Assembly: GCF_032854445.1 (NCBI RefSeq)
Contig: NC_088307.1
Location: 27,628,547-27,692,546, forward strand
Source of the DNA: Liolophura sinensis
Taxonomy: Eukaryota; Mollusca; Polyplacophora; Chitonida; Chitonidae
Direction: 5' to 3'
DNA length: 64,000 bases
The position numbers and the translations under genes were made by a program. The notes under the pieces were generated by a model. It was not told the origin of the DNA. It did no database searches and saw nothing but the letters and a program-made list of their open reading frames with translations. Below, one piece after another: positions 8,929 through 63,689 of this stretch (positions are counted from its first letter, which is position 1; each line of letters starts with the position of its first letter).

Positions 8929-9029
8929 TCACAAAGGTAGTTCACATCGCATATGTAGGCACGCGACTGTCAGTTCGTCCAGGCGTGGAGGTCCCTGCAG
9001 TCCCGGGTCAACTGCTCTCTTCTCAACAG
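8929..9029 (-). other. Terminal cargo exon of gene D
   Basis: Acceptor CTGGCAG, then 101 nt to TGA. The exon completes an Ala codon, gives VEKR, then the mature peptide starting AVDPGL and ending CELPL. It is the same length as the terminal exon of gene C but unrelated in sequence after the dibasic site, and it aligns codon for codon with gene B at its start. Confidence 0.75.
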
Positions 9030-12000
9030 CTGCCAGGGTAGAATGAAAATACGTAGGGATAAAGACTAGTTAATTGACAGATTTATTGATTGATTGACTG
9101 ATTGATTGGTTGATTGATTCATTCGTTAATTGGTAGGTTAGATTGTTGGGTGGTTTGTTCATCGACTGATTAATCCATTGATTGTGGATTAGTTTCTGTG
9201 TTGTTTAGTTGGAGGGCTGGTTGCTTGAATGATTTACTGATTGTGTAGATCAGTTGGGATTGATTCATCGGTGTTTGAGTAAAAAAGCAACAATTGTGCT
9301 TGTTGTAACTGACTTTTTGAACTACACATGAAACTATATATGAAACTTTTTGAAACTTAACGGAAAGAAAAAGCGAACAAAGCTTATGTAGAAAAAACAT
9401 TTAAAGCTGTATCTGAAACACCCTTTACTGTTTAGTTAGATTTCTTCACTGAAGTAAGTGCAAGCAGATATTTTGGTTGTAAGGTGGGTATTATGGGCAA
9501 TACGGATAAAGTCGACAATAACATCACACCGACTTTTTTTCTGGCTCTGAAACATGCATGCCAGATTCAGTTTCATGTACAAGAACACATTTTAGAAGTA
9601 AAGTTAACGAAAAGTTAACTAAAGTTAGTTATTTTCGTTATAAGTAAAGTTAGCGGAAAGTTAATTATTCATCATTATATGCTGGGCAGATGTTATGTGA
9701 CGTAGCTGACAGCAGATGACAATCAAACTATTTGACTTCATTTAATCTAGTGAAAACAGAATCTACACAATATGCTTACAGATATTTAGATGCAGATTTG
9801 TTGTTCTTTCTACGGGTACCTACCTGTTTTATATGTATATTACATGACAAGGGACGTAAATGACTTTACCACACTACATGAAACATTTCAGAGACTGTTA
9901 ATACGATGGGTAAACATTTCAGCAACTGTTGCACAGACTCTTACATATTTTGGAAAAAGCAATCAGAGATCGTGAAGCACACAACAAATCGTGGAACGAA
10001 CCTAAGTACAAAAGTCAGTTAATTATGAAAACGACTCACCCGTCTCCTTGACATCGAACCAATGAGCTGGAACTCCGTCGCAAAACTTGCTCAAAATGGG
10101 CCCCAATTCTGATGACGTCATATTGCGGAGCTGTGCTTCACCTTGCTTTAATGGTTGAAGGTCGAGTGTTTTGCCCTAACAGAGATGAAATGCATGTAGT
10201 AAAGACTCTTCCTACTGCTTAGTTGATTATGCGTATACTCAAATTAAAAGAAAAATAAAAAAAAAATTTTAGCGTGCCACAATAGCAAGTTTGTAAATCA
10301 TAATATGTCTCACTTTGCTAATTAGACATGTCACATTTTAATCGCCGTTATTACTGTAGTCTTTCATTTGTCTCAATTTGCAGTTTCGCGTGATCTTGTG
10401 TTATAAGTTTACAATACGTATTCTGACCCTAAGCTATTCACTACTACGATAAAACAACAAGTTTATTGTTAAGAAAAAGCAAAGTTGAGATATTTTTTCT
10501 GACTATCGTCTGTTTTACGTCGTGCTCACTTGTACACCGGCGACCAGCTTTATGGTTGGGGGAAACGCATGGCCTTTCCACGTACGACCTAAGAGGAAGC
10601 CAGCATGAGCTGGGCTTGCACTCACAGAGACCGCATTGGTGAGAGGCTTTTAGTCATTGAACTGCGCTAGCACGCTAAACTCCTCGGCCACGAAGACCCA
10701 AATTTCTTGCACGCAACGCAACATTGCAGAAGTAAATAAATCGATTATACTATACTTAGTCCTCAATGTTTGGCAAAATAGACCCTGAAGATAGAGGCCA
10801 ATAGGCTGACATACTCGTCTGTCTTCCAACATCTGCTTGACGGACCGGAAATCCGGGATTTTCACCTTGGTAACCAAGCACATGCCCCTTCCAAAGTCTC
10901 TCAGCGCCACGTAACCCTAGTTGGACAGAAAACGCACCACCTTATATCAGAGCTAAGCCGTAAACACGGCCCCGAAAGTAAGAGGTCATATTTTATACAT
11001 ATGTACTGGTTGAAGGATTTCACTATTTACGTAAATCACACCAGGATTCGAACTCAAGTGTCAGAAGCCGAAGTACAGCGCTCTGTCAAGTGAGCTAAAA
11101 GGGAATTTCCACAAGCTGCTGGTAGTATAAGCACAAACAAGCTGCTCCCGTTACATATATTCCGTTACTTATTATATAGGCCTACTCCCGTTACTTATTC
11201 ACGTTAAATGACATTCTTTTCTGTTCACTATAAAAATTCATATTTAGCCCATACATGCGTCATTCATATAACCGTTCAACTTTTAGCTGAGTCATTATAC
11301 GGCGTCGCCCGATGTGATAAAGGGTTTCTGACCATCAGCCTGCGCACTAATTCAGCTTGGCAGGGTTTAAATTTCATATACCCCTTGTGGGCATGGCCTG
11401 CAGCTCTGACAAGTGTTATGTTCACATTTTAACCTGCCTGATCAGTGTATATGTAGGTATGTGGCTGTAGGAAGCTGGACACTAAGCCGATATATCATTT
11501 TTGTGCTGCCTCAGAGAAAGGCCATACCAAAGACGTCAGACACTAAACACAGTATATACTGAATCCAGATGGAACCAGACGATTGCAGATGTTAAAAACT
11601 GGTAAATGCCCCAATATGGTATTGAACGCTTGTTTCCAGCGGGAGCGTTGATGAAGCGGCTAACACAGTGCAGTGAATATTGTGTGCGGTGAATACTGTG
11701 TGCGGTGAATGTTAATACAGGTACTCACAAGTTTGAAGTCGTGAAGGGCCATAGAGTTCTCCTCGTGAATCCTGTAAGCCTCCGCCGACACCATGAGAAT
11801 CGTTTTTTCTTTGTCATTAATCAAAACCGACTCGTGGATGTCCACATCTCCGGCATTACGGACCCAAGATATCCACTGAGATATATGGAGTTCATGAAAA
11901 CGATTTCTAAACGTCATTTTTCAACTTTGTTACATTTTAAGTAGAACATTAAATTCAATCTTCATTTACAAATTCTGTGAAACTAATTATGAAAATATTG

Positions 12001-13346
12001 CGTTACAGCGCCATAGAAAGTTTTCTTGCGATATTTGAACTGGAACGTCCATTTTGGTTAACGGCTGATATATGAATGTTTGGTTTGAGGCAAAGCACAA
12101 AAATATTACACTGATTTGCGAGGTAGATAAAAAAAATACACCGGAATTATACATTAACATCATTTACGAACACAAAATATTCAACATCGTTTTCTTACCT
12201 CGGGTTTCTCTGCTTTGTTTTGTTGAAGGTAGAATATGACACCAAAGACGATGGAGCCAAGGACCAGTGCCGTGGAGAGTGAAGCAATCGCGGCTATAAG
12301 CACTGGACGCCTTCTCTCTCCTCTACTGGGTAGGTTTCCTTCCGGATATGTCTGGAAGAATAGTATGTTGTTCGTGCTTTACTATTTGTTTTATTTTGTC
12401 ATATTCTTCTTTTGGCACTTAATACTGCATGGATGGAGAGTTGAAAATTTGACACCAAATCCTAAGAAAAAGTCCAAAAGGTACACCTTATTGCAAACTA
12501 CATAACATCCAGGAATCCATTATGAACAATCCCTTCCTCTCCGGGCGAACGCGGGAAGGTCTGACAGCAGCTTGTGGATGGTTGTAGATTTCCCCCGGAT
12601 TCTGCCCTGTTTCCTCCCACCATACTGCTGGTCGTCGTCGTATAATTGAAATTTTTGTTTAGTAACCTTTTAATCATCAAACAAATAAATAAATAACTTA
12701 GCCATTACAATGACATGCGCTCTGTGCTTCCCACGCGCTGTATACTGAGGCCTAGTTTTACAGCATATCTATTGTTGCGATACCATCTCTGACGTGGAAG
12801 CAAAACTTCATGTCAAAAAGAGGGAAAATGGAAAATGAAACATTGCGTTCAACAGCATTAAGTTAAAACTCAAATGATATACACAAAAAACTAAATAAAT
12901 GTTAATGCCAACAGTTTAGAAAGTCTCTCCACGTATTGATTGTTTGCAGCCTGTAAAATAATTTTAGATTAAAACATTTTAAATGTTTCTGTTGTGGAAT
13001 ACAACACCATCAATGTTGATTTGACATACATGTAAGATAAACTAGTCAGATGACATCATTTTGTAAACATTTGTAACGTGGTAAATTTGTAAGAATATGA
13101 TCTTAGCTCAGGTTTTATTCTAACTGTTCAAGTAGAAGATGAAATGGTAGCAACTCACACATCCCAATTTATCAGATGTCACTAGAGTACAATCCCGCAA
13201 AATGCTATGTTTTTATCATACTTACAAACAATTACATTACAAAAAAACACTACAAAGGGACCAAGCACGCGGACTCTTTATCCGCCAATAGGGAAACTTA
13301 CCAATTTACAGAAATCGGACTCTTGTGCCATTTTCGTTCCGGTCAT
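8929..13346 (-). CDS. BRICHOS gene D: membrane precursor with C-terminal cargo peptide
   Basis: Six exons: 13302-13346, 12199-12351, 11729-11875, 10815-10916, 10040-10175 and 8929-9029, joined at GT/AG sites in phases 0,0,0,0,1. The product is 227 aa. Residues about 32-57 form a signal-anchor helix after GERRRP, so the rest should face the lumen or outside. The BRICHOS domain spans about residues 108-195: the conserved Asp is in LHDF, the first Cys in GMCLV and the second in FCDGVPAHWF. The last exon gives EKR (197-199), then a 28-residue peptide with two Cys (VACLHMRC) and a stop. In the family, BRICHOS acts as an intramolecular chaperone for a beta-prone C-terminal segment released by proprotein cleavage. 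Role of the peptide: unknown; host defence is an inference from polychaete homologues. Introns hold SINE pieces at 10508-10690 and 12520-12695. Closest relative in the window: gene B. Confidence 0.85.
9082..9130. repeat. (ATTG)n simple repeat
   Basis: Imperfect tetranucleotide run in intron 5 of gene D. The rest of that intron (9130-10039) shows no feature beyond short AAAGTTAA repeats near 9600-9670. Confidence 0.7.
10508..10690 (-). repeat. SINE, minus orientation, in an intron of gene D
   Basis: Body and head of the main SINE (TTTTACGTCGTGCTCA, then CCAGCATGAGCTGGGCTTG, then GACCGCATTGGTGAGAGGC), in intron 4. Confidence 0.7.
12520..12695 (+). repeat. SINE 3' part in intron 1 of gene D
   Basis: GGGAAGGTCTGACAGCAGC, CCCACCATACTGCTGG and a tail of AAATAAATAAAT. 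The tRNA-like head is missing. Confidence 0.65.
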
Positions 13347-15236: not shown

Positions 15237-15710
15237 GTGGACATACCAATTGTCTTACACGTCCATCATTTGACACTTTTCTCACTGACTGGTAAATGTT
15301 ATTTTGTTAATTCCTACGTTAACTTATGTTGTATTGCGTACAACCGTATTTACTTGGTAACATGCAAGAAGTGTGGTCAGCAGTATGTTGGGAAGACCAC
15401 CCAGAAACTACATCTACGGGTGAACGGGCACCGTAAGTCCGTGCGCAAGAAACAATTGCTAATAGGCAAATATTTCTCTGCCTCCGACCATGACTGGGAC
15501 CATCTCAGCATTCAGATAATAAAATCGATTTATCCATCAGCAGTTGAGACAGATGTCGAATCTGAACGTAAAATCCGTGACGGTGAGCTATTCTGGATGC
15601 TAGAGATTGGTTCAGTCTTCCCGTATGTGTTGAATGATAACCATATGGGAATCGGCAATGTAACATCTAGCCAACCAAATGACTCCATCATAACAAATTT
15701 ATTCAAATAG
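15237..15710 (+). pseudogene. GIY-YIG endonuclease-like ORF of the Penelope-like element
   Basis: The motif IYLVTCKKCGQQYVGKT carries the GIY-YIG signature in degenerate form, with a CxxC pair, followed by LHLRVNGHRKSV and the Glu-containing ERKIRDGELFWMLEIGS. An upstream Cys/His-rich piece in another frame (15140-15290, with CGHTNC) probably belonged to the same domain. A single TAG (15708-15710) separates it from the RT part in the same frame. Confidence 0.75.
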
Positions 15711-15797
15711 CATAAACGCAGACCCCACAGTCATGGTAGGAGGAAGTTCAACAGAAACACGATTCACAAACACGTTACAGTTAGCTATTTAGTAGGA

Positions 15798-24207: not shown

Positions 24208-27200
24208 TTAATCAACTGAACTGTCCCAGAAAGGTAGATCAATCTCATAATACACGCAGTTGAGTCTCTCATGGCTTTGTTGGTCGTCAGCACGCCTCTT
24301 TGTAATTCCTGTCGTGGCAAAGAAAAAGAGAATGATATTTTTGGTCATTTTTTGGTTTTTTATTCGATGAGTATTTCTTTATGGCCGTTCACAAACCTCA
24401 GATAATGAAAATGTGACAAATAGCTTTACAAAACAGAAGTAGGTGAAGCGTAAGAAGGGTTCGAACACTTGACCTCACTTGGAGAGGCAGCATAGACCAT
24501 TATCAAAGACCACGGCCTGTAACAGCAACCTTACTAGAAACAGGTGTCCCGTAACGGCAGTGTACACCATCACCAAAGGCCACAGCCTATAAGCGCGACC
24601 CCATTGGCCAACAGGTGTCCCATAACGGCAGCGTAGATCATTATCAAAGGCCACAGCCTATAAGCGCGACCCCAATGGCCAACAGTTGTCCCGTGACGGC
24701 AGCGTAAATCATTATCAAAGGTCACAGCCTATAAGCGCGAACTCACTTGCCAACAGGTATCACGTAACGGCAGCGTAGATCATTATCAAAGGCCACAGCC
24801 TATGAACGCGACCCCATTGGTCAATAGGTGACCCGTAACGGCAGCGTAGATCATTATCAAAGGCCTATAAACGCGCACTCACTGACAATAGGTGTCCCAC
24901 AACGGTAATGTAGATCATCATCAAAGGCCACAGCCTATAAGCGCGAACTCACTGGCCAACAGGTATCCCGTAACGGCAGCGTAGACCATTGTCAAAGGCC
25001 ACAGCCTTTAAGTGAGAGGCTTCGAAAACTCTACCAGACATCGAATATCATGAAATCTTTTAGATAATGTATTCAATATTTTCCTAAATATTTTACTTAT
25101 AAGAGAGAAATATTCGGTTAAATAACAAAACAATCTCAGAGGCTTTTTTCTTTCATTTAGATCCAAAAGCTATAATAAGTCGAAGTTTCAACTGCCGACA
25201 TCTTTCTCGTTGAAGTATCGATCTTAATTATTGAAGTACCACTTAAACACTGTAAGATTAAAATTGTGTCATACGCTAACCTGTGTCATCGGTAAGATCA
25301 AACCAGACAGCGGGCACGCCGGCGCAGAATTGGCTCAGTGTGGGGCCTAACTCTGATGACGTCATATTCCCAGGCCGGAGTCTGGCGAGTTTCACTTTCT
25401 GTGGAGCCAGATCTCGTCCCTTTAAAACAAAAATCACATTTTACCACTATTTTAGACACAAATCGATATCAACCTACATAAAACAGAAATGCGGACATTA
25501 AGCTATATCTGGCATTTAACAAGATGTCCCACCACAATTTATTCTCTGATACAATCGGTTGTTTACTCTGAGCACTTTTCATTAATTTCATAGAAAATTA
25601 TTATGACACGCAGTGACTGAGCCAGGAAATTACAATCATGCGTCGGTATTAGCTGCATGCTGTGAATCGAAACATGTGAGGCACGTCACCACGCCTAATG
25701 CCAGGGAATTCGGTGCAAAATTTAGCTCAACTGGAGTAACAGAGAGTTATACATAGACTATTCTCTGTTTTGAAAGAAAGGAGTTATTGGGAACAACCAA
25801 TTACACTGTATATGTACCAGCTGCTCAGACTAAAGGAGAAAAAAACAAAAAATGAGCAAAGGGTGTGAACAATTATTTGTAAATATGATCTTAAATATTT
25901 GTTCAATTTTTGATGGGAAAAAGGACATTTAAAATAATGTTTGTATTGTGGTTATTTGGGACCACTTCTTGCTATTTGTCTTTGAAATGTCTTTCTTTTC
26001 TTAAAGAAAAATGAGTGAAATATTGATGATCATATTTATAAATTTCTTTTCCCATTATTTAATCTGAATTTTACTCCAGTTTGTCGCTTTCTCCAACTTT
26101 AAGATTACGTAGACGCGAGACACTCACCTGTCTCGCTTCGACGGTAGTTTTAACAGCCTCAAAATCCGGATGTGAAACTTTAGTCACGAAACAACGGTTC
26201 CTTTTGAATTCTCTCAGGGCAACATAACCCTACCGAAAGAATAAAAAACAGCACTCACCTAAACGTCATTATTAAGAACTATTTACATACTAGGTTCTAT
26301 CCAAGTGACTTTTCTTGACGGATCCCCCCCACCCCCAGCCTGTTTTGTGTACCCGAACTACCCAGGTGTCATATCAATTCTTGTAAAGCAATATGTTACA
26401 AAATTTTTCGATGCATTTCATTTGAGAGTTGCCTAACTCCAGTCTTAAGATTTATTGTCACATATTTGATGTCGGGGAGATTCTTGGCTGGAGGGAATCG
26501 GATTCCCCGTGAGTGCCCAGGGAGTGCACAGGAAAAAGCATGTTACTGAAAAACTTTACCACACATTGTTGGGAGATATGTGGTCTCCCTGGATCGTTAG
26601 ACTGCTCAGACGACAGCTTATTGTCACCAAGGCCACACATGTCCAGCACTAAGGGCGGGAAATCCACTCGTAACAATTCTTTGTTAAGGCAGGATTTGAA
26701 CCCTCGACCCATGTTTTAAGTTAAGATTTAGAGGTAAGTACTTCAAACCTACTCTAAACCTCGAATAACTGAAAAAAGTTATCCCGAAATAAAGGCTATC
26801 AAAACCTAACACTAAAGGGATAACTATGCACAGAATCGCACAAAATACAATGAATGAAAATTATTCCACATTTTGTTGCATGGAGTTTACATGGGCTGTA
26901 GAATGAAAGAATGCAAGCAATGAAACAAGGCTCATCAACAAACAACTGAAAGTAGTGCTTAAAAATGTTTCATTTTTTATAGATGCATGTAGTTAAAGGC
27001 GGCTGGAGGTCCCCTGGATCATATGGCTAAAGTACTGACTAGCTGTTACCCTAATATTAGTTACATGGTTACTCAGTTCCAAATATCTAAGGTGTTTGGT
27101 AATTTCTTTCATTCATGCTATCTCCTTTCAAGTAGCTGCCAATGCGCATGCGTTTCCAGTTCACATGATCTGGAAGGTGGCGGTTCACAGAGACTTGATG

Positions 27201-30193
27201 GCATAGGTTATATTAGAAGATAAGTTGGTTGAATTATAACCAAACTATCCCTTTTTATATGATGTTCTCTCCTCAAGTTTCAAAGATAAACTGGTTATGT
27301 TTGCATTTCTATATTCATTACACAGAGATGACCGCTTTGATCTGCCGTCTCCTATTGTCATGTCGTTGTGAACCGCCATCTTGCAGGTCATGTGACCCGG
27401 AAACGCATACGTTTTGGCGACTATTTTAAAAGAGATAACTTGCATTCGCCAAACGCACAGTGCATGAATAAACCAAATTTTCAAACATGTTATATATTTG
27501 GCGCAGCTCCACTAAAGACAAAAGCTTTCAGAAAAGGTCACAGTGCGAGAGTTACATGCTTAAGGCAAATGCCAAGAATGATTTTTTGCTAAGCACATAG
27601 ATGTTGTGTGCTCCGGGCGTTTACAACGAACACTTCAATTTCTCTTCATTCAAAAACCTGATCGACGCCATATAGGTGAAACTTCTTCGAAGACGTCGTA
27701 AACACAACTAAAAAAATAAATAAGGCACTATCCTGGAAATTTTCACAAAGATCACGAGGCCAATACATATTGCTAAAGTCATATCATGTTTTGCCATAAC
27801 GCACCACTTTGAAGTCATGCAGGGCCAGAGAGTTTTGAGCGTTGAGTCTGTAAGCCTCGGCCGACACCATCAGTATGGTCCGTTCCTTCACGTTGATGAC
27901 AACCGACTCGTGAGTCGCTATGTTGCCATGGAGACGCTTCCACGAAATCCACTGAAACAAAACAGAACAGCAAAACCAACGTTTGTACAGATAACGAGTT
28001 TCATGGAAAGTACCGATAAAAAGAAGCTAACAAGGAGAAATTGCTAACCTCCTCCAAAACTATCGATGGCAGAAAAGTAAACAGTATAACGATGATAATT
28101 ATCCGGCAAAATACTTGGCATTTAGAAATTGAGAAGCCATATCACTCATCTGGAAGCGGTTTGGAACTTACACCGGAAATGCCATATAGGTGGTAAATTC
28201 AATGTGTTTTTTATTAGTCAAAACGACAAACTGTTTTGAATGGAAATTCCGAAAATGATAAATTCGGCTATTATTTATCGAGCTGGTTGACGGCCTGACA
28301 TTGTGCGAATCGGGCTGTAGTCCTCTTTGATACTAGTGGATGGCGCGTCAAAAACGGCAAGGATTCATCAGAAAGCCTTTCAATCTTCAGCCAGTTTCAT
28401 CACGTGATACAAATAGGAGACTTGTAATTGCATGTATTACTACTGTTCCGAGTAGATCAGCTAATAAAGTAGTCCCCTCAGGAAAAAGGCCTCAGTACGT
28501 AACGTAAAATATGTATACCCGTCATTGTTTTTTTTTTCTGTTTTTTTTTGGCTACTTTCCGTTATAATTCCCTCATTATGCAATATCACAGACCACGCCT
28601 TTAAACACAGTAACTAGAAGAAAGGTAAAAGAAAATTCTTTTCATATCTGTTGTTACATAGTTATTGCCACCTGTGTACTGCTTAAGTGACGTGCGCTGT
28701 TTGTTAACAATTTAAACATACCTCTTGATTTGCGGAACTTTTCTCGGCTTGGAGATGGAATATTACCCCAGCAAAAACGGCACCAAGAACCAAAGCGGTG
28801 GAGAGTGCAGCAATCAGGGCGAATGCAGAGCGTTTGTGTTCTCCTCTAGCTGGAGTACAATCCTCTTGGTTATACTGTGAAAACATTGTGAATCCACGTA
28901 CGCAAAATTTTAAACAACACAACTAAACGATATTCATAAACAAACATAAAATCAATGGTGCACCCAGAGCTTTGTAGAACACATTACAAATGTGAAATCA
29001 ACTTGTGAATGCTAATGTATATCTGTATCAATGCTGGAAGTTTTACCTTGCATTTAACCAACCAGATGACAACGAGCTGTACTTAGGAGTGTCTACACAT
29101 ACTGTGTCTTCTTGTGGTGCGGCGAGTTCATGCCGCCGAAGTGCTGCCGGCAGTGAAGTATTGTGCCAAAGAGACCTGGCACCACACCCGGTCACATTAT
29201 TTTACATGTGGCCTACCAGTCCTGTTTCCCTGCTCCAACCTTTCAATGCTAAGCAAAAAAACAAAACAGGAAAAAAGCACCTTTCTCTGTGTTACCATTG
29301 GACTGGGCTTTGATCACAGATCTTCCCGAATTTGAGGTGTACGCTCTAACCACTACACAAGAGATAGGATTGATCAAGGCTACTAAATCTAATTACACCT
29401 TTGCTTAGTCACGCCGCTGTTGTCTGGCCAAAACGCGGATATGGAGACGCCATTTTTTTCAAAACAAGATCTCGTTTGTATGTAACTTGGGATTTTCGGA
29501 ATCTACATTTATTTCGCTATCAGCATGCCGCATGCACGATTTTATCAGCAATTTCTTAGGAAACAGTCGATGACGAAATTAGGTTTAAAGGTTGTTCCGT
29601 AAAAGCCGTCGTAATTACCGCATGCAGCAATTAGGAGCTCACGTTTTTTGGCTGTGTTACAAGGCACGAGAGACAGTACGTGGGTAAGGGGAAGTAACTC
29701 TCCCCGCAATCTGCCCAACTTCTTCCACCTATGAACCCGACCGATAATATACAAAATTTAATTTTCCTAAGTACGGCGTTAAACCACATGTACTACTTAT
29801 AATAGGTCGGTTATACACTTGTTGATAGACACAAGTCTGTGCTTTACACTCTGTACTATGTGACATCAAGGGGCCTCCGTGAGCGGGGCAAATGTTTAGT
29901 TTGCCAGAGAGGCACAATAACCCAGGAACCTCACACCAATGCGGGCGTTGTGAGTTCTAGTCCAGTTCATGCAGGTTTCCTCCCTCTTGGTAGCAGTGAT
30001 GAGAAATATGTTCATTTAGCTTCTTTATCTAAGGGAATGTGTTCACAAGTCCATGTATGGATTAATCTATGTCAGCAGTGTGAAATATGAAAAAAAAACG
30101 AAAATAAAAAAGGACAAAAAAAATGCCTGATCTAAAATATTTACTTACCACTTTGTCCAATTTTATCTTATCTGCCATTTTTAGTCCCGTCAT
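24208..30193 (-). CDS. BRICHOS gene C: membrane precursor with acidic C-terminal peptide
   Basis: Six exons: 30149-30193, 28722-28874, 27805-27951, 26128-26229, 25281-25419 and 24208-24308, phases 0,0,0,0,1, total 228 aa, every junction GT/AG. Exon 2 carries the signal-anchor helix (about residues 30-56, FALIAALSTALVLGAVFAGV). The BRICHOS region has the Asp of LHDF (end of exon 3), the first Cys in NRCFVTK (exon 4) and the second Cys in FCAGVPAVWF (exon 5). Exon 6 follows the polypyrimidine acceptor CTTTGCCACGACAG and gives ITKRR, then a 27-residue peptide (ADDQQSHERLNCVYYEIDLP and more) with one Cys and net negative charge. An acidic single-Cys peptide differs from known cationic BRICHOS antimicrobial peptides; dimerisation through Cys or a non-antimicrobial role is possible. 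A close copy of exon 6 lies at 63577-63689. Confidence 0.85.
24480..25015. repeat. About 71-bp tandem repeat in intron 5 of gene C
   Basis: About eight copies of a unit containing CGTAACGGCAGCGTAGATCA, TTATCAAAGGCCACAGCC and TATAAGCGCGACC. The same array is found at 63690-64000 beside the paralogous terminal exon. Confidence 0.9.
26480..26760 (-). repeat. SINE-like element, second family
   Basis: GGATTTGAACCCTCGACCC at about 26690 is the reverse of a B-box-like sequence, and the unit lies beside the dispersed repeat 26740-27055. It is in intron 3 of gene C. Confidence 0.4.
27115..27440. mobile_element. Foldback element (MITE-like) in intron 3 of gene C
   Basis: The left arm 27115-27187 (with CGCATGCGTTTCC and GGTGGCGGTTCAC) is the approximate reverse complement of 27363-27440 (GTGAACCGCCATCTTGC, GGAAACGCATACG). 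The inner 175 bp have no coding content. Confidence 0.6.
29060..29360 (-). repeat. tRNA-derived SINE of a second family
   Basis: On the minus strand it begins near 29360 with GTGTAGTGGTTAGAGCG, a good A-box-like head, followed by TTCGGGAAGATCTGTGATC. It lies in intron 1 of gene C. Confidence 0.5.
29869..30000 (+). repeat. SINE head fragment in intron 1 of gene C
   Basis: GGGGCCTCCGTGAGC, then CCAGGAACCTCACACCAATG and TGAGTTCTAGTCCAGTTCATG match the tRNA-like head of the main SINE; the body is missing. Confidence 0.65.
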
Positions 30194-33200: not shown

Positions 33201-33671
33201 AGACATGAGAACGTAACAGAGATATTGATACTTTGATATTTTTGGCTTCATTTATTCTAAAATTCACCATAAACAAAATAAATATAACTTTTTTCCGAGT
33301 CAGTGATAGAACATAGCGATATGGTCATGTCACAAATATACTCGTCATGGAGATGCCTACGGTATATGACGCAATTTTAAAATATAAAAAAATGGCCAAT
33401 GGGAATACTTTGTGAAAACTTTTAGTTAATTCCAAGTGCTTCGTCACATTAAGCTAATATCCAGTAGAAGGATTCCATTGTTTGCGACTACTTAACATGC
33501 GACTGGTCTCTCGCCTATAGGCTTACCCCCTTTAATGTCGCCATGGATCAATAAATCAATTTGTCTCTTCCCAATTACTCAGGGGTTAAACTAAAAACAC
33601 TCTTGGATGAAGCTGAATGGATTGACTGGTTCACTATAAACAATTAAATTTGTTTGCTACATTGCATTAGG

Positions 33672-35285
33672 TTAAAAACTAATGGAAAGTTCGCAAGACA
33701 AACGAGCTTGTAAACACGCTACTGGTCTGTCTCCCACGGGTGGTATCCTTTCCAGTTCAGCCCCGAGCTTCACTTCAACTTGCCTTTTCACCATTCCTCC
33801 AGAGGTAGAATGAGAATACATTGGGATAAAGACTGGTTGATTTACTGAGTGACCGATTGGATAAATGACTGTTCAGTGTACAGCACTTTAACACACGAGT
33901 TAGATTTTTGACGGTAAACCTTCATGTAACAATTCACAAAACGCCATTCTACAAAAAATTAAACGTATAATAATAAACCAAGCTAAACACAAAAGGCAAT
34001 CAGTCACGTAAATGGCGCACCTGTCTCTGTAATATCGAACCAATGAGCTGGAACTCCGTCACAAAACTGGTTCAACTTGGGCCCCAATTCTGATGACGTC
34101 ATATTGCGGAGCTCTCCTTTGCCCTGCTTCAATGGCTGAAGGTCGAGCCTTTTACCCTGAAAGAGATGGAATGCATATGTAAAAAATACACTTATCTATT
34201 TAGTTGACTAATACAGCATTTATAATCAAAGTATTTTTTTCATTAAGAATAAAATGAGAAAGATGATTAGCATTTGAAACTTCAAATCTTTATGTTTTCT
34301 TTCATTTTATATGTGAACATTGTGTAAATCCCGAAGCTGTTTGCCACTGCGATAAAACAGAAAGTTTATTGTCACAAGAAAATAACTGAAATCCTTACAA
34401 TCTCTACAAAAGGTAACACGTTTGCATAATTTGATCTATATACTAAGAATAATAATCAAGGTATATATATTTTTAAGTGTATAGTTGAATAGGTCTCTGC
34501 AACACAGAGATCCAAAAGTATATATGGGGCTGACTTACTCGTCTGTCTTCCAACATCTGCTTGACGGACCAGAAATCGGGGATTTTCACATTGGTAACCA
34601 AGCACATGTCCCGGCCAAAGTCTCTCAGCGCCACGTAACCCTAGTTGGACAGAAACCACACCAAATCATATCAGCACATCGCTGTACGCACGCCCCACAA
34701 ACCAAGACTACAGAGACTTACAGCTGTTACTGAGGAAGGCTTTGTGATTCATTATGAACTCATATTTATCCCAAGCATGTAACAATCACGACTGGAGACT
34801 ATGACCAACAAGCTTAGCCACCTATGTTTCTGCGGGTTTTAGCTTTGCCTTCACTATGAAGCTGATGGTACCATAACGCTATCTCCTTGTAACAGACCGG
34901 TGTCAATATTTCTAGTGCTGTCTCACTGGAATATCAAGTTGAAGACACCACACATAGTCAGAGTATAAAGACAATGGGTGAGTCCGAAAAGAGGAAATGT
35001 TAAATAATTTCAATCCTTTAGTATGATCTAATATAAGATGTGTGTCTATACATTGGATGTGCTCACGACTCAGATAGCTCAGTGCAGAGTATGTTATATT
35101 ATAATACTGTTTGGATATCTATAGACATTTCTACTCACTAATTTAAAGTCATGAAGGACCATGGAGTTTTCCTCGCTAATCTTGTACGCCTCCGCCGACA
35201 CCATGAGAATCGTTTCTTCTTTGTCATCAGTTAAAACCGACCCGTGTATGTCCACATCTCCGGCTTTACGGATCCACGATACCCA
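33672..35285 (-). CDS. BRICHOS gene B: 5'-truncated paralogue with intact 3' exons
   Basis: Four exons: 35139-35285, 34539-34640, 34021-34156 and 33672-33796, homologous to exons 3-6 of gene D, with GT/AG junctions in the same phases and no stop. Together they encode about 169 residues. BRICHOS landmarks: LHDF, DMCLV and FCDGVPAHWF. The last exon gives MVKR, then a 36-residue peptide with two Cys (VACLQARLSC) ending SISF. Its acceptor is TCTGGAG, a GAG rather than YAG site. No equivalent of exon 1 or of the transmembrane exon 2 was found between 35286 and 38300. The upstream flank of gene D is matched right next to it (35690-35890), pointing to a deletion of exons 1-2. It may be a pseudogene, or may use unrelated 5' exons. 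Confidence 0.7.
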
Positions 35286-41644: not shown

Positions 41645-42489
41645 TGAAATTGTCTCATCAATCCATTAGAGAAGACTGTGACGATTATATTGAACTGTCA
41701 ACTGAAGTATTAGCTAATTCATAATTAGGCAATTCGTAATTCCACAGCCATTTTAACCAACTAAAATTAATTGATTTGATTGGTGTTTTACGCCGTACTT
41801 AACAAAAAATTAAGTAAATAAAATGTTCATCATGTGTTGTAAGTATTTAGACAGACTCTGAAAACAGCATGTAAAGAATGTTAAATATGATGTCAGCTTT
41901 GTTAAAAACTAAGTACACAACCAAATTAGTATTGAAATGACGCACCTTTCTTTGTGACATTGAACCAGTGATCCGGCTGTCAGTCGCAAAACTGGCTCAG
42001 TATGGGTTCCAATTCCGATGACGTCATATTGCAAAGCTGAGCCTTACCTTCCTTCAGTGGCTGGAGATCGAATATTTTGTTCTACAAGAGATGAAATGAG
42101 AAGTTTTGGGTTAATGGAAATGCAGGAGTGCTACTACTTATCAGATGGAAAAAAAAAAAACAGTTTTACTCAAAAGGTAACAAAGGAGAAAACTGCGTAA
42201 ATACAACTCCTAACCATTCACTGGCACTGATCGTATCACCTTTTAAGCATCTGTAGAATATAGCATTGCCTTTATTTGGGGTAATGCTACATGGCGTCAC
42301 CTATACATTAATAAGTCTACCAGTGCGATAAAACAAATAAAACTTTCACTTTATAAAAAATTGTCAAAATCTAAAAAAAAAACACCTTTAACATACCTGG
42401 AAAAACGATAGAAAATCATTTGCTCAGAATCGAAGTGGGTGCTACACCAGCCTTATAACCTGCTTATAGCTCATCTTTCTAGGACTTGT

Positions 42490-43941: not shown

Positions 43942-46299
43942 AAGACTTTATCCTAAAGACCCAGTTCAGTGCAGAAGACCGATGTATAGGTGAATGGCCT
44001 CAGCGGGGTGAAAATCGCTGGAACCCAACAAAGGGAGATAACCTTCACAGCAGAAGCATTTGAAGTCGTCTGCAGGATTCGAAAATATACCTGTACCCAT
44101 GTGACCGTACTTGTCCAATGAAAAGCGGTGTATTTAGTCGGAATCGCGATAATTAGTTTTATCTCCCTCTCCCATTCGCCACGTTCAAATACAGACCACC
44201 GGGTACAAATCGCAGGACTGACACACAATCTTAGTTTTATGTACCTTTCCACACTCCCGCCCGCTTCAGGGCCTATGTTAAATGCTACACCACGGATTAA
44301 CCGGAAGTCTAAGCAGCTGATACCGGAAGGCGAAAGAGAGAAGGTAATGTCGCTCTTTCGTGTTTTTGACCTTTTGAAAAAAGGCGAAAAAAGGTTAATT
44401 TCGCATTCTTGATCTTGAAATATAGTCAAAAAACCTAAAGTAAAAAGAGAAAAACAAAGAAGAAAAAAAGTTGATGCAACTACGTACTTTCAGTCTTTCT
44501 CCTTGCATTTTCTTGCTTTCACCTTGCACTTTCGTGTTTTCTATCTCCGCAGTTTCGAATTTTCGTTCTTTGCCTTTTCGTATTCTCGTTTTTTCGTGTT
44601 TGCGCGTTTTAATCAAAACATGGATGCTCTTGGCTTTCCACGGTACTCTGCGCAGTTTCCTCCCATCATAATGATCGCAGCCGTCTTGAGTACTGCATGA
44701 AACACCAATAACTAAATAAGTATATAAATAAATAAATAAACAAGCACGAACCAACTTTTTTTAAAATTACTGACTTGTCTGGCTTCCACCATTTGTTTGA
44801 CGGACGAGAAACCTGTTCAGAAAGCATTTGTTCAGTTTAAAGTCGCTCGTAGCCCTATGTAAACAGACAGCATACTACGGATAATATCATCCTGCAGTAG
44901 GTAAAGTCCCATAACTAAAGAAAGTGTAAATATCAGATACATATTTTGTGCTACCAAACTGACCAAGTATGACCAAATTTAAAGTTATTCCCAAATGATT
45001 GCAACATTCTGTTGACCATGCGTCGGTTAATCTCACCGACGTTTTAGCCATTCCGAAAGGTTTTTATTTCGGGCTTTACCATTACTGTGACAAAGCCTGA
45101 CGCCCCATAAAGTCAAGCCCCAGAGACAAGATTCAATGCCCCATAGTCATGTCACGCACAAGTCATGTACAAAGCATGTCATGTACAAGGCCCAATGCCC
45201 CATACACACATTCCATCGACATGCCCTGGAAGCCTGTAAACTCATAGAATCTGAGAATCGTCTCCTTTTGTTATCAATCAAGGCCAACTCCTGTATATCC
45301 ACATTTCCGGTTTTCCGGAAAAACATTGTCGAACAAAGACCTGGCTTAAAAGCCTGATTGGCAATGTGAAAACAAGGTAAGAATAAAGTACATGTAGTAT
45401 ACAGTTACGTAATAAATGACTCAGAACACCGTTTTAAACACAAAAACACAAACTAACAAAAAGCCGAATAACTTGCTACTTTACATCGGGTTTCTCGTCA
45501 GCTTTCTTTTCTTGAAGGTTGACAATGACACCGAAGGAAAGCAAACCTAGCACCAGTGTAGTGGAGAGTGAAGCAACCACAGTATAAGCACTGGACACCT
45601 CTTTTGTCCTCTTCTGGATTGGTGTATTTCTGGTGTTGTCTGAAACAAAAAATAATTTTTCAGCTATTTAAAAGGTGTTTTTTTATGGTGAGAGGAAAAC
45701 AGGCATGAGACTTGATCTCAAAACCCTAAAAAACGAAATAAAAATAAAACAATAATAATAATAATAATACATTTTCATTTGTTACAGTTTTGACTGTTTT
45801 TTGTTTGTTTGTTTTTATTATTTATTGATTTGTTACGATTTATTACTATTTTTGTTCTGCCTTTTTATTTACTGATTTTCCAACTTCGTGTTTTCCAAAA
45901 AAAGCAAAGGATAGGAGATATAAAGTGTCTAGCTCAAAAAGAAAACAAAAATTTAAAAAAAAATGCGCGGAAAGAAAGATTGAACTGCTAATAAGATTAT
46001 TTACCATCTGTTAGTTCAGTATTTTAGAACATGAAAGCCTACCAAGTCAAAATATTTCGACTTGTCTGCCATTTTCGGTCCAGCCATGCTTTTTAATTAC
46101 AACCACCGTTTCAAGAACCTATCTAAACGCCCTCCAGTTTGAGGATTGGAACGTCTAGCAGCTTTGTTTCTGGAGCAGGCAGAGACCACTGTGAGTGCTA
46201 TTAACATGATCAGCTTTTAACTGTACAGAGAAACCAGCACATACGTGTAGAAGAGAACAACATCAGCTCTCCAAGGTACAAAATAGAGTACAATAGAAT

Positions 46300-49834: not shown

Positions 49835-52800
49835 ATGACTGGGTTCCAGAACGTAGCAAAATCGGCAGAGCTGAAAGAGGTCAAATCTGAGGTAATACTG
49901 ACTATATACTTTTTTAGGTTCTTCGGTATTTTGTGTTAAGTGTTCTTTTGGGAATTGGCCTTACGATTATTGAACTTGAATGTCCATCTTTGCTTGACTG
50001 TTGGTATACGCATGTCTGTTTCGAGCTGAAAAAGTTTTCGTGTGAAAGATTTAACAAGATTCTTGGAACAAGAAGATTTATTTCTGGTATGATATCAAAG
50101 TGAATCTAAAGTCAGACAACAAATTTGAATTAATTCCAGTGGAAGGTTTGCATAGTTTAATAACGCTCATCAACAGAATAAATCGCAAAAAATCGGCATT
50201 ACATCGCCACTCCTATGGCAGCGCTATTTTGCTATGCTATCTAGACTGACGTCACATCACCTAGAATCTCTCCTGTTTAAGTATAATGGGTACTGAACAA
50301 TATAGGGTGGTTCTGAAATTAGGTCCACGTGACTGGGTCTAGACATAGAAGGTGTAAACAAAACGCGAGATACCCCGCTCAAGGGATTCAGTCGTGTTCT
50401 ATTTTCAAACGACAGAAGTTTGGGGTTAGGCAGTGAGGCAAGGCGAACTTTCAACAGTCCCTTTCGTTTTCGTCTCTGCCTACTTGGTTGTCAGCATCAG
50501 CTGCCTGTAGACATCCGCAAGTGCGGCAAACAGAACAGAGTTTTGTCTTTCGAAACAAATTCTTTTCTGTCTGTGTTGGCAAGGCGTATAAATCTCGTTT
50601 GAACATAGCCTTCTGTACAACGCGTCTGTAGGTTTTTATTCTGCACGTGACACGCGCCATGTTCACTCTAAAGTAGCTGAAAAATCAAATATATTTTAAA
50701 TAAATATAGGCTTGTATATATCCTACGGCATAATCAGATCACATTGCTAAGTTTCCACAGAAACCACTGCAGTAATTATGACCTACAATATTTGGATTCA
50801 AACTATCTTTGGTATATTGCTTTGCATGTATTTATATGTGCAAAAACGGCAGCAGTTTCCTTTTCAGCCGGTGTTACGACATCAATGACAGTTTCTTTTT
50901 TTAAGTTTGACATATGTTGTATTAATTCAACATAGATATTTTTTAGATTAACAGGATATCATGTTCAACATAACACAGCATTATGTCATAATAACACGAT
51001 ACTTTGTATTTACCCTGATATGGTGTTAAAATGAACTAGTTTTTTGAGTGATCTGATTAAATTCAGTTTTCTGCACCTTACCCTCATTATTCAAAGATAT
51101 TGACTGCATGTCGTACAATTTGTATGATTATAAATATGTCCTTACTTTATATAATCTGTGTCCTGCGATAATTCACCAAGAGCATGCATTATGACTGATT
51201 GGGTTGGTACGATTTATCAATATCAAAACTTGGACGAATTTGCATGTGGATATTTATACACAGCACATAAAATACGTAATGGTTTGAATATAAATGGAGA
51301 CCAAAGAAACGCACATTGGCAAATATTTTTATGGAAGAAAACTGAAGAATTCTCATAAATCTTGATGAACTTTTTATAGAAATATAGGAATCTAGCTTAA
51401 ACACTAAACACAAATATTGTTGGTCTTTCAATGAAGATTTATTTTTCTCTCCTTAATCATAATCGGTACGTGGATTTCAAAAGACAGACCAAAACACTGC
51501 AACATTGCTACATCTAAAAAGTGTAAGTCCGGGGTAAGAGGAGGGGGAGGGGGGCGTTGGGCCTCCGTGGATCACTTGGTTAGCGCGCTAGCGAAGAGTA
51601 ATGGCCCAGGAGCCTCTCACCAATGCGGTTGCTTTGAGTTCAAGTCCAGCTCACGCTGGGTTCCTTCCCGGCCGTACGTATGAATTTTATCTAGCAACCT
51701 GCGGAAGGTCGTGGGTTACCCCGGAGTTACGCTCCCACCATAATGCTGTATAAGTGAAATATTCTTGAGCACGGCGTAAAACACCAATCAAATAAGTCAA
51801 AAGTCAAATATAAAAAGTGTATGCTACCTGGTCACGCCTAACGAATCTAAGAAAGTATTCTCCACAGTTACTTTTGAATTACACAATTTTTACATGGTTA
51901 CGTTTTCCTTTATTGACAGACGGCAATGGAGATACAGAAGAACGCAAATAATAAACGTGCGATTCTAGCAGCTGTTGGAGCGAGTTTGCTGACGGCATTA
52001 ATTGTAATAGCCGTGGTTTTCTCCCTTTACTACGGTACTTACATATGTCAAGCCAGGAATACACCCAAAAACGAGGTAAGAGATGTTCTGATGGGATAAA
52101 TATTTTCAAAAGAAAAAGATAACACACTTTTTCCCCTATTAATAACAATAACATTTCGAGCTAGTTTAGCCAACCGTTACACCCTCGATTGACTAGCCTC
52201 TAGTCTTGGCTTCAGGTGCTTTCACCAAGGAAACTCCCTCATCAGCCTGGATTCCTTGTTACACACCAAGGAAACTCCTTCACCAGGAAGAATTTCCCAT
52301 TACAATCTTTCACAGACATCAAACTGTAGATAAAACGTACGTAGTATGTGTTTTATAAATCATTCAGGTACTAGGGCACAAAGACATTCCCTTTTTAAAT
52401 CCAGTGCAATGCCCGAGGTTACAGGACTAAACGTGTTATTTCAGACAGCAGTAGCTAGCGATAATCCCAAACTTCACATCAGTTTGATCCAGAAGCCTGT
52501 AGGACATTTCAAGTCGACAGGCTACAGTAAGTTGCTGGATAACGCTTTCAGCGAGGGTCGATACTTTTTCGATAATCAATGACGGATGTTATCACCTCCA
52601 TGTCTGCAGAATGTCTCCTGTCTAACGGCAAACAGGATCTTATAAGTTACAAAAGCAAAATTCATGGAACTGGGTCCAAGACTTGCTTCCAAACTGAAGA
52701 GTGAAGAGTATACCACAGAAGTTATAATTTCAGTCTAAAAATCGCCGACCGGTGCACTAATGAATTTGATTTCAATTATTTGTTTGCTAAACTATTTCAT

Positions 52801-54575
52801 TAAGATGATGACTACAGCAGAAACCGAAACCGGTTTCACACTTCTTTAATAAACAGCAGGATCAAAGGAATGGTTCCAGTTCCAGTTATTCACCGATATG
52901 TTTTAATACAGATTCTTCCATACGTCATATTAAGAGGATATTTTTTGTTCTATTTTACCAATTGTATAGATTCATTTACTTTCAGAAATTCTCCTTGATT
53001 ATCTCGGAGTCCCAATCCACGGGAAAGGTTGAGGTGAAGGACACAGAGCGGGTGATCATAACGGAAACCAGGACACCCAATCAGACACTCCATGACACCA
53101 TGACTTTCCAGGACTTCAACAGGGTAAAGTGTCTTGTAATACGAAGCATGTTCTCCCTAGTTCTCCTGAGTCAAATCAAGGCCCTCGTCGCTCGACTGTA
53201 GCTTGTTGGTAGGCTTGTTGGGTCTCTTTTGTAAGTGAATTAAACGAAGGTGATATTAACCGTCAGTTCAACATTTACCGCCATAATCCGTTAAAAAGGT
53301 ATGTTATAGGATGCACACCGGACGATTTCTTTACGGCCATACCAATGATTGCAAACTGTAACATCGAAACCACTATTAGTCCATGTTTAAGGATTGAATT
53401 TATTTGATTTTGTCGCCCAGAAAATACAAGCCATAAAAGACCTTAACAGGAACGAGTGTTTCATCTCCACTCTGGATATCCAGTTCGAGGAGGCTAAGGC
53501 AACGGCCCAGGGCAACCAAGTAAGTGTAAAAAAAATAAGATCTTGTGATATAAAAGAAATTACTTAAATATAAGCGTCAAGTTAGACATTCGAAAGGTGT
53601 TTGGAAAGCTAAACCGAGAGAAAAGTGTGTCAATGGCGGCGGTCAGTTATACTTGTAAGTAGCGAACGTGGAGAGCGGAACATACTCTGTCATGTCTATG
53701 GGTCGGGGGGTGGGGGGGGGGGTTAAAAAATCTGTACCACGCACATATGTATATTGGTTTGATTTGCAGACAACGTTTGACCTTGAAAACTACGACACTC
53801 GGACTAAAGTAAGATCAAAAGAGACTATCCCTTTTCAACTTGCGCAGCGAGCACTAGGTTCTCACGTGGTGGAGTTCTGCAGAAATCTGCCCATGTATTG
53901 GCTGAAGGACGCCAATGGCCCAGGTGCGTTTTCCACACTCATCGAATGCATGCAGGTCAATTGCTAGTACACATTTGACCCCTATGGCAAACCTGTGTAA
54001 AACAAATCCGAAAAAATTGTTCCGGTATGGATAAAAAAAAATACAAACAAAAAGTACATTTTAAAGAAACTAAAGACTACAGTCAAGAAAGTGTTTATTT
54101 TTTAGGACAAAGATAATCTCAACTATGGAACAGAAACACAATGTTCTGCCCTATGATTTCTTGGCTATTGCGACATCACAATAAAAGACCCGACCATCAC
54201 TCATGATTCTTTCATATAGATCATGACTTTAGTTTGTATCTTATTAGCTAGTTTTACTGGTTATCGTTATATAGACAGATGTCCACTGGATTTCTTCTCA
54301 TACATTATCACCCTTGTTCTTACCAACAAGCTGAATATAACCCATACAAATAAATATCTAAATAAATAACACGTGACATTCCCCAAATAATTTCAAGATT
54401 TTTCTGTACACAGTTTGAACGCAACCTACTAGCTGTAAATCACAACCACTGTTTGTAAGCCAAACCCATTGTTGTATTCTTCACAGACAACGTACAAGCA
54501 CGAGGAAGGCGAGATTATATCCGGATCAAAGGAAAGATATTTGGTGTGAGGTTTGTCATAACCATTGAATGGTGA
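49835..54575 (+). CDS. BRICHOS gene F: precursor of a cationic beta-strand-like peptide
   Basis: Six exons: 49835-49891, 51920-52075, 52986-53123, 53421-53519, 53770-53923 and 54487-54575; phases 0,0,0,0,1; 230 aa; all introns GT/AG. Residues about 34-60 form a signal anchor (AILAAVGASLLTALIVIAVV). BRICHOS landmarks: FQDF at the end of exon 3, first Cys in NECFIS, second Cys in FCRNLPMYWL. Exon 6 gives the furin-like site ARGRR (206-210), then a 20-residue C-terminal peptide (DYIRIKGKIF followed by GVRFVITIEW). The peptide alternates aromatic/aliphatic and basic residues around a central Gly, as in the beta-hairpin antimicrobial peptides cut from polychaete BRICHOS precursors (arenicin type), but has no Cys. 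Being diverged from C and D, it is the oldest paralogue here by eye. It is the only member on the plus strand, head-to-head with pseudogene A. Antimicrobial function is inferred. Confidence 0.87.
51559..51803 (+). repeat. SINE, full length, in intron 1 of gene F
   Basis: Complete copy from GGGCCTCCGTGGATCACTTG to the 3' end GCACGGCGTAAAACACCAAT plus CAAATAAG. Head, B-box region (GAGTTCAAGTCCAGCTCACG) and body are all present, so it serves as a reference for the family. Confidence 0.85.
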
Positions 54576-63050: not shown

Positions 63051-63576
63051 AGGAGAGTGAATGACAAGCCCTTTAACTACCCGGCCGAAATTAGTTGCCC
63101 ATGTTAAGATTTAGGCCTATTAATCAAGAGCAGATTTTTAGTGGTCTGGAAAAAGAGTCAAACTGAATTGTGCATAAGTGTTCTGATTTGTTCACCTTTA
63201 TTTTTTTTATTGACTTTGTGTCTCAAGAAGGTAAATTCTGTCTAAATGGTGATGGTCAGGTCTGTGTTATAGGAAGCATACAATACAAAATCTGGAACTC
63301 TGGTTGCTAAAAGATTGTGGATCAGAATATCCGGGTTCAATTTCCGGTTACAAGTTACAAGCGACGTGTACTGCCAAAGAGACATATAAGGACACCCGTG
63401 ATATCGAAGGCTGTCTAAAGTGGGACCCTTTATAAAAAAAAAGCCATTATGTTCTTGACATACTTTACGATTTAATATAAGATGCAACATTCTTCTTGTT
63501 TGACAAGTATTTTTACAAAGTAACTTTGCCTGTATCAATGGGCGTATGGTATAACGATGAGTTTTTCGTGTGCCTC

Positions 63577-63689
63577 TTATTTTTGCAGCGTGTCTTTTAA
63601 AATATCTTTTGAAGGTAGCTTAATCTCATAATACATGCAATCGAGTCTCTCATGGCTGTGTTGGTCGTCAGCACGCCTCTTTGTAATTC
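63577..63689 (-). CDS. Terminal cargo exon of BRICHOS gene G (gene continues past right edge)
   Basis: Nearly identical at its start to the terminal exon of gene C: acceptor GCCTAGACAG, then GA completing a codon, then ITKRR and ADDQHSHERLDCMYYEIKLP. After that the two diverge: gene C has about 22 extra bases and ends FWDSSVD, while this exon reads on to KDTLQK and stop, giving a 31-residue peptide after KRR. The other exons would lie to the right of 64000. It could also be an orphan exon carried by the segmental duplication. Confidence 0.6.

What the first reader, a model, noticed from the sequence alone, without database searches (positions are those of the whole stretch)
8929..63689. A BRICHOS gene cluster with a one-exon, hypervariable cargo peptide
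Three complete genes, one truncated gene, one pseudogene and one terminal exon share a single exon-phase plan (0,0,0,0,1). BRICHOS landmarks (Asp in HDF or QDF, two Cys, VPxxWF-type end) are conserved. The terminal exon always follows a phase-1 junction and carries a basic cleavage site (EKR, VKR, TKRR, RGRR), after which the peptides are unrelated in length, charge and Cys count. Seen: the exons and motifs. Known: polychaete antimicrobial peptides such as arenicin are released from the C-terminus of BRICHOS precursors. Inferred: this locus diversifies secreted peptides by changing the last exon while keeping the chaperone constant.
Basis: partly seen in the sequence, partly recalled or inferred. 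Interest (0 to 1): 0.92.

Follow-up and report, generated by a model that had tools for sequence, protein, structure and literature searches.

The report
Chiton BRICHOS peptide-precursor gene array
A chiton (a mollusc) carries a large family of neighbouring genes that each pair a conserved folding-helper domain with a small, fast-changing peptide at the end, a design so far described mainly in marine worms that make antibiotics this way.

Summary
On the window three six-exon genes (A, B, E), a gene lacking exons 1-2 (C), a pseudogene (D) and a stranded last exon share the phase plan 0,0,0,0,1; spliced A, B, C and E pass Pfam BRICHOS. The genome is not a polychaete's: it matches the published chiton assembly now named Liolophura sinensis. 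The window is part of a family of 31 loci, 24 within about 367 kb. Precursors look like type II membrane proteins ending in a basic site plus a 15-45-residue peptide on its own exon. The cargos are not all unrelated: cargo type follows chaperone clade, so no cassette swapping is seen. But cargo evolves much faster than chaperone: BRICHOS dN/dS is 0.09-0.39 in 17 of 17 paralog pairs, and cargo dN is 1.6 to about 37 times BRICHOS dN. Only E-type last exons exceed their noncoding flanks. Two E-type genes with 92% identical BRICHOS regions carry cargos of charge +1 and +8 (KIKIKIKKDKIKIKVKF). The stranded exon is the tail of a deleted B-type gene. The design is known from polychaetes; I found no molluscan array in the papers searched. 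Peptide function is untested.

The parts
13302..13346 (-). Gene A exon 1 (MTGTKMAQESDFCKL), phase 0
   Evidence: conserved ATG exon upstream of A, F, P1 and B, with donor
12199..12351 (-). Gene A exon 2, predicted signal-anchor membrane segment
11729..11875 (-). Gene A exon 3, linker and start of BRICHOS (HDF)
10815..10916 (-). Gene A exon 4, BRICHOS first Cys
10040..10175 (-). Gene A exon 5, BRICHOS second Cys and VPAHWF; ends in phase 1
8929..9029 (-). Gene A exon 6: AVEKR then cargo AVDPGLQGPPRLDELTVACLHMRCELPL
30149..30193 (-). Gene B exon 1 (MTGLKMADKIKLDKV)
28722..28874 (-). Gene B exon 2, predicted signal-anchor segment
27805..27951 (-). Gene B exon 3
26128..26229 (-). Gene B exon 4
25281..25419 (-). 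Gene B exon 5, phase 1 end
24208..24308 (-). Gene B exon 6: GITKRR then cargo ADDQQSHERLNCVYYEIDLPFWDSSVD
35139..35285 (-). Truncated gene C exon 3 (exons 1-2 not found)
34539..34640 (-). Gene C exon 4
34021..34156 (-). Gene C exon 5, phase 1 end
33672..33796 (-). Gene C exon 6: GMVKR then cargo QVEVKLGAELERIPPVGDRPVACLQARLSCELSISF
33492..33577 (-). Second, shorter last exon of C (VIGKR-QIDLLIHGDIKGGKPIGERPVAC), phase 1, weaker relative of C exon 6
45485..45639 (-). Pseudogene D, exon 2 remnant (frame disturbed)
45261..45317 (-). Pseudogene D, exon 3 fragment
44775..44810 (-). Pseudogene D, exon 4 fragment
41944..42078 (-). Pseudogene D, exon 5 with in-frame TGA
49835..49891 (+). Gene E exon 1 (MTGFQNVAKSAELKEVKSE)
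   Evidence: single prediction, weaker than A and B exon 1
51920..52075 (+). Gene E exon 2, predicted signal-anchor segment
52986..53123 (+). Gene E exon 3 (QDF)
53421..53519 (+). Gene E exon 4
53770..53923 (+). Gene E exon 5, phase 1 end
54487..54575 (+). Gene E exon 6: DNVQARGRR then cargo DYIRIKGKIFGVRFVITIEW
63577..63689 (-). Stranded B-type last exon (GITKRR-ADDQHSHERLDCMYYEIKLPSKDILKDTLQK); an exon 1 remnant of the same gene type lies about 1.3 kb away just outside the window; exons 2-5 were not found there

Best explanation
This is part of a tandem array of peptide-precursor genes in the chiton Liolophura sinensis. Each intact gene is predicted to make a type II membrane protein: a short basic cytoplasmic tail, one membrane helix, a BRICHOS domain in the secretory lumen, a basic proprotein-convertase site, and a last-exon peptide. 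BRICHOS shields the aggregation-prone peptide during folding; a furin-like protease then releases it. The array grew by tandem and segmental duplication. The chaperone stayed under purifying selection, while the cargo drifted or was driven in charge, length and cysteine count, often around a conserved core. Shown: gene structure, BRICHOS membership, array, rates. Inferred: splicing, cleavage, release, chaperoning. A host-defence role is likeliest for the cationic cargos, less so for the acidic ones.
For: BRICHOS over the curated score in 7 of 8 spliced proteins tested (A; B, C, E, F, P1, E3; L019, made of exon 3-5 hits, scores 22.3, below 25). Invariant Asp and two Cys in 9 of 9 rows. Hydrophobic segment with net charge +2 to +3 in the ten residues before it in A, B, E. 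Same junction phases of exons 2-5 in 12 gene models, 45 of 46 acceptors AG. 31 loci, 20 with a last exon found, 18 of these supported by homology. BRICHOS dN/dS 0.09-0.39 in 17 of 17 pairs; cargo dN higher in 17 of 17. In four separate sister pairs pooled, changes S:N are 35:32 in BRICHOS and 13:39 in cargo, Fisher p = 0.003. E2 versus E3: leader NVRVRRQ shared, flanks 176/199 and 160/170 identical, exon 6 53/68 with 12 gap columns.
Against: No transcripts or peptides seen. Exon 6 is not faster than its noncoding flanks in C/F and B/P3, and equals the intron side in E/E3, so much of the cargo change fits relaxed constraint. Of the four pairs only C/F is below p 0.05 singly. Beta-strand amphipathy beats shuffles at p < 0.05 in only 6 of 15 cargos, uncorrected. 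Cargos of A, B and C carry charges -2, -6 and -1. In 11 of 31 loci no convincing last exon was found.
Confidence: 0.66

Rival explanations
1. The genes are lineage-expanded relatives of the ITM2/Bri2 membrane proteins, and the released tail is a Bri23-like by-product or regulator, not a defence peptide. BRICHOS is the functional part and the tail matters little.
For: Type II layout with convertase site and short tail as in BRI2 (PMC9714404 passages). The only PDB match of the family profile, weak (E 0.72), is ITM2B. Cargo constraint is low.
Against: ITM2 tails are well conserved (PMC2751770 passages) while these are not. Here there are 31 loci with pseudogenes, which I recall as typical of effector families rather than of ITM2.
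Confidence: 0.2
2. Relaxed constraint: last exons are decaying, and the apparent hypervariability is neutral drift in largely unused tails.
For: Exon 6 identity is above or near its flanks in C/F (111/122 versus 160/186 and 160/191) and B/P3 (72/97 versus 149/193 and 105/135). Second last exons of C, F and the C3 gene are short or carry stops.
Against: Within the A/C type the core around ACLHxR is recognisable in A, A', C, F, P1 and S; in E2/E3 Ile positions are shared while polar ones differ. The kept reading frame and basic site count for less, because the scan selected for them.
Confidence: 0.17
3. Cargos are structural or mineral-associated peptides (girdle, radula, shell plate).
For: Acidic cargos in A, B and C; chitons biomineralise heavily (general knowledge).
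Against: No repetitive matrix-protein composition seen in the listed cargos; no tissue data either way.
Confidence: 0.07
4. Copy number is inflated by unmerged haplotypes.
For: A, B, C, D, E recur about 96-104 kb away at 94-99% identity; heterozygosity is 1.24%. P1 and L002 share an identical exon 5 (protein) and lie on either side of a 200-N gap, so that pair may well be an artefact.
Against: No N run from the window start to the end of A', about 109 kb; divergence of the copies often exceeds 1.24%; purge_dups was run.
Confidence: 0.08

Closest known systems
Preproalvinellacin family (Alvinella, PMC5431198: passages and section 18 seen)
   Same: Five introns, AMP in the last exon, BRICHOS upstream of it, at least six genes, some in tandem.
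   Different: In A. pompejana the AMP is monomorphic and BRICHOS has Ka/Ks near or above one between many paralog pairs; here BRICHOS is constrained and the cargo varies. Annelid; a signal peptide is described.
HfBRI peptides of Heteromastus filiformis (PMC10745061: first two of eight parts read)
   Same: 13 BRICHOS precursors with cargos of 18-91 residues in nine structural families; five are transmembrane precursors; HfBRI-20/-23 described as cysteine-free beta-hairpins; HfBRI-75/-91 not cationic.
   Different: Annelid; transcriptome only. Sequences are in figures and were not compared.
Arenicins, capitellacin, nicomicins (PMC9756803, PMC11767717, PMC6265681: passages)
   Same: BRICHOS precursor, dibasic site, C-terminal peptide.
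   Different: PMC9756803 (2022) calls BRICHOS-AMPs only found in polychaetes; this is a mollusc.
ITM2B/BRI2 (PMC9714404, PMC2751770: passages)
   Same: Type II membrane protein, BRICHOS, convertase cleavage, short tail.
   Different: Tail conserved in ITM2; no tandem array mentioned in the passages seen.

Membership tests
BRICHOS superfamily (PF04089) | Match above the curated score | tested here: met
   7 of 8 spliced proteins at 28.5-38.4 bits, cut-off 25; L019 (exons 3-5 only) 22.3
BRICHOS superfamily (PF04089) | One Asp and two Cys conserved across the superfamily (PMC2751770 passage) | tested here: met
   D97, C113, C166 invariant in 9 of 9 rows
BRICHOS superfamily (PF04089) | Order hydrophobic - linker - BRICHOS - C-terminal region | tested here: met
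   A, B, E full models
BRICHOS superfamily (PF04089) | Anti-aggregation chaperone activity | not testable with these tools
   needs protein
BRICHOS-related antimicrobial peptides | Basic convertase site followed by a C-terminal peptide | tested here: met
   last exon found in 20 of 31 loci, 18 supported by homology, 11 not found
BRICHOS-related antimicrobial peptides | Cationic cargo | tested here: inconclusive
   of 15 cargos: +1 to +8 in P1, S, E, E2, E3, L019, L025; 0 in F; -1 to -6 in A, A2, B, C, P3, P6, L010
BRICHOS-related antimicrobial peptides | Antimicrobial activity | not testable with these tools
   none
BRICHOS-related antimicrobial peptides | AMP on the last of six exons (as in alvinellacin) | tested here: met
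   A, B, E models; no RNA support
ITM2 family | Conserved C-terminal tail with two Cys (PMC2751770 passages) | tested here: not met
   cargos vary in length and have 0, 1 or 2 Cys
Cassette-swapping diversification | Cargo type independent of chaperone clade | tested here: not met
   6 A/C-type, 4 B-type and the E-type rows each form one side of a branch (support 90/94, 99/99, 100/100); L025 and L023 were labelled E-type by chaperone

The most novel reading that the evidence does not exclude
BRICHOS-chaperoned defence peptides are not a polychaete speciality but an older lophotrochozoan arsenal, and in chitons the last exon is the evolvable part: a constrained chaperone tolerates almost any beta-prone client, so new peptides arise by last-exon duplication, charge change and six-base repeat slippage. 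The E3 cargo contains (AAGATC)3, and a six-base unit encodes the two-residue alternation of an amphipathic beta strand, so slippage makes beta strands directly. This is the reverse of the published Alvinella pattern.
Probability: 0.3. Interest if true: 0.75.

Novelty: new variant of a known kind. Interest (0 to 1): 0.6.

Why it matters
It carries a worm antibiotic architecture into molluscs at array scale, with intact genes, pseudogenes, partial duplications and very close sister pairs in one sequenced genome. That makes two questions directly testable: what range of clients a BRICHOS domain accepts, and whether chaperone or cargo is the part that diversifies, since the published Alvinella case shows the opposite. 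It also names short peptides that can be synthesised and assayed.

Tried and rejected
Polychaete origin: rejected. Mitochondrial contig C632 has cox1-3, nad2, nad3, atp6 on one strand and nad1, nad6, cob, nad4L, nad4, nad5 on the other, the order I recall for chitons; a tRNA scan with the bacterial code found none. Assembly statistics match PMC11068029, corrected to L. sinensis: 632 scaffolds, two scaffold lengths equal to C3 and C8; total length (609,464,459 versus 609,495,693) and C13 (30,099,635 versus scaffold_9 30,102,928) differ slightly.

Whole-genome Pfam BRICHOS and haemoglobin-linker searches found nothing, which is uninformative for exon-split genes; protein-query searches worked. 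A plasmid search was pointless for animal DNA.

Cargo swapping between genes: not seen. Stranded last exon as an alternative exon of neighbour F: judged unlikely, because a B-type exon 1 remnant lies between them. Haplotype duplication as the whole explanation: unlikely, but possible for L001/L002. Positive selection over all cargos: not shown. The PDB profile search gave one weak hit. P3 has two candidate first exons, one without a donor, so it is not counted as support.

Rows dropped before counts: E' (exon 5 frame disturbed) and C' (bad exon 5 bounds in my model) were left out; B' was in that table but not paired. S (exon 4 acceptor AA) and I (stop in exon 4) were kept although probably pseudogenes. 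The 17 pairs are not independent. In one search two exon hits (L004 exon 5, L024 exon 3) end a few bases before the donor.
Full report
What is there. Six-frame self-comparison and hand reading of the minus strand show three homologous exons repeated at about 10-12 kb, 25-28 kb and 34-35 kb, plus remnants at 42-45.6 kb; a divergent set sits on the plus strand at 52-54.5 kb. Exon 2 is a membrane segment, exons 3-5 carry the BRICHOS domain, exon 6 a basic site and a short peptide. A conserved first exon was recovered by comparing upstream regions of A, F, P1 and B; E's first exon is a single prediction and P3's is ambiguous. Full models of A, B and E read through as 227, 228 and 230 residues. Junctions are phase 0,0,0,0,1; over exons 2-5 of 12 gene models (two of them exons 3-5 only) 45 of 46 acceptors are AG, the exception being exon 4 of the C3 gene.

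Membership. Spliced A, B, C, E, F, P1 and E3 pass the Pfam BRICHOS cut-off at 28.5 to 38.4 bits; the second-array gene L019, tested on exon 3-5 hits, scores 22.3, below 25. Asp97, Cys113 and Cys166 are invariant in a nine-row alignment, matching the Asp and two Cys that PMC2751770 reports as completely conserved in the superfamily (passages). The strongest hydrophobic 19-mer lies within residues 32-53 in A, B and E, with net charge +2 to +3 in the ten residues before and 0 after, as expected for a type II signal anchor. This is a prediction.

Organism. The window is part of a 30.1-Mb contig in a 609-Mb, 632-contig assembly. The mitochondrial contig has two strand blocks, which I recall as the chiton-type order. 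PMC11068029 (passages) reports 609.5 Mb, 632 scaffolds, and scaffold lengths of 27,489,247 and 58,388,612, equal to contigs C3 and C8 here; the total and C13 differ by a few kilobases to tens of kilobases. A correction renames the species Liolophura sinensis (PMC12441733, whole text). So the finding lies in a mollusc. Literature: PMC9756803 (passages) states that BRICHOS-AMPs are only found in polychaetes. Searches for BRICHOS with mollusc terms listed 19 papers, of which I saw passages in five; a BRICHOS/chiton/oyster/gastropod search listed five of 1,743; antimicrobial peptide with chiton terms listed five, titles and abstract starts only. None of what I saw describes a molluscan BRICHOS-peptide gene family. 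These cover open-licence papers only. One lead: a BRICHOS protein tabulated among genes upregulated in mussel digestive gland (PMC4203926, one passage).

The array. Protein searches of the genome and exon mapping in fetched loci give 31 loci with exons of this family: 24 on C13 between about 27.456 and 27.823 Mb, five at 29.286-29.349 Mb, one on C3, one on C8. The search calls its counts lower bounds. A, B, C, D and E recur about 96-104 kb downstream at 94-99% DNA identity. The stretch from the window start to the end of A', about 109 kb, contains no N run, so this is more likely a true segmental duplication than two haplotypes, though read depth was not checked. Against this, L002 holds a 200-N gap, and L001 and L002 on either side have the same exon 5 protein and nearly the same cargo; that pair may be an assembly artefact. 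The duplicated homology of A ends just past its stop codon. Many copies are damaged: D (stop), I (stop in exon 4), E' (frame), S (acceptor), C and C' (no exons 1-2 found). The stranded last exon at 63.6 kb is 91% identical in DNA to B's; about 1.3 kb away is a B-type exon 1 in a stretch 89% identical to B's upstream region. It looks like the two ends of a B-type gene whose exons 2-5 are gone.

Cargo. Last exons were found in 20 of 31 loci; 18 are supported by homology to another gene's last exon or its flanks, two (L019, L025) by the splice and motif scan only; in 11 none was convincing. That kind of scan alone has a false rate of 216 in 2000 random stretches. The A/C type (A, A', C, C', F, P1, L002, S) shares a core like ACLHxR with 2, 1 or 0 Cys; the B type (B, B', P3, P6, L010, I) shares RLxCxY; the E type is cysteine-free. 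In the chaperone tree of 19 rows the A/C, B and E groups each form one side of a branch (support 90/94, 99/99, 100/100), so there is no sign of last-exon swapping between types. Tandem second last exons occur in C, C', F and S, but they are short or contain stops.

Rates. Over 17 paralog pairs (not independent; seven include S or I) BRICHOS dN/dS is 0.09-0.39 and cargo dN is 1.6 to about 37 times BRICHOS dN. In four separate sister pairs pooled (A/A', C/F, B/P3, E2/E3), BRICHOS has 35 synonymous and 32 nonsynonymous changes, cargo 13 and 39 (Fisher p = 0.003); singly only C/F is below 0.05. Against noncoding flanks, exon 6 is the more divergent part in E2/E3 and E/E2, equals the intron side in E/E3, lies between its flanks in A/A', and is no faster than flanks in C/F and B/P3; several flanks carry many gap columns (60 in the E2/E3 3' flank). 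The fair reading is weak constraint on cargo generally, with a case for diversifying selection in the E type. E2 and E3 have 92% identical BRICHOS regions and the same leader NVRVRRQ, yet the cargos are WHVKITISISITFQL (charge +1) and KIKIKIKKDKIKIKVKF (+8). Where E2 has Ser, Thr or Gln between Ile or other hydrophobic residues, E3 has Lys. The E3 cargo DNA holds three copies of AAGATC.

How it works, most likely. A type II precursor enters the secretory pathway; BRICHOS shields a strand-prone tail; a furin-like protease cuts at the basic site; the peptide is released. The basic site is seen in the sequence; cleavage, release and chaperoning are inferred from BRI2 and polychaete precursors (PMC9714404, PMC10745061, PMC6265681). 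Cationic cargos (P1, S, E, E2, E3) fit membrane-active defence peptides, and H. filiformis has transmembrane precursors with cysteine-free amphiphilic hairpins. A, B and C cargos are acidic, F's is neutral, and their role is open. Strand-like amphipathy exceeds shuffles at p < 0.05 in 6 of 15 cargos only (A, C, F, P1, S, E2).

Comparison. The gene plan matches preproalvinellacin (five introns, AMP last, some tandem paralogs). The evolutionary pattern is opposite: in A. pompejana the AMP is monomorphic and BRICHOS varies. So this is a new variant of a known kind, in a new phylum and at array scale.

Noticed in passing
window 19890-21378, 4169-5570, 30753-31687, 48714-49131, 22078-23053: Several minisatellites with 41-, 48-, 35-, 38- and 23-base units between the BRICHOS genes; possible recombination points of the array.
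   Followed up: no
window 15225-17930 (+): Run of adjacent open frames; the first has a sub-threshold GIY-YIG match (21.7 bits, cut-off 22.6), the other four tested none. Possibly a mobile element.
   Followed up: partly
window 40514-40699 (-): Sub-threshold reverse transcriptase match (RVT_1, 28.9 bits, cut-off 29.6), next to a repeat that recurs in L008 and L014.
   Followed up: partly
G000 contig C99: Seven mitochondrial cox1 matches about 15.5 kb apart in one contig, one of them slightly shorter: a mitochondrial concatemer left in the assembly.
   Followed up: no
L018 3688-3764: Cargo KIKIKIKKDKIKIKVKF with (AAGATC)3: a natural peptide resembling designed lysine-rich beta-hairpins (resemblance recalled, not tested).
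   Followed up: partly
L025 (C8:17.247-17.251 Mb): Single divergent E-type BRICHOS gene with scan-only candidate cargo GTIIIQYKNVLIVIRY, outside the arrays.
   Followed up: partly
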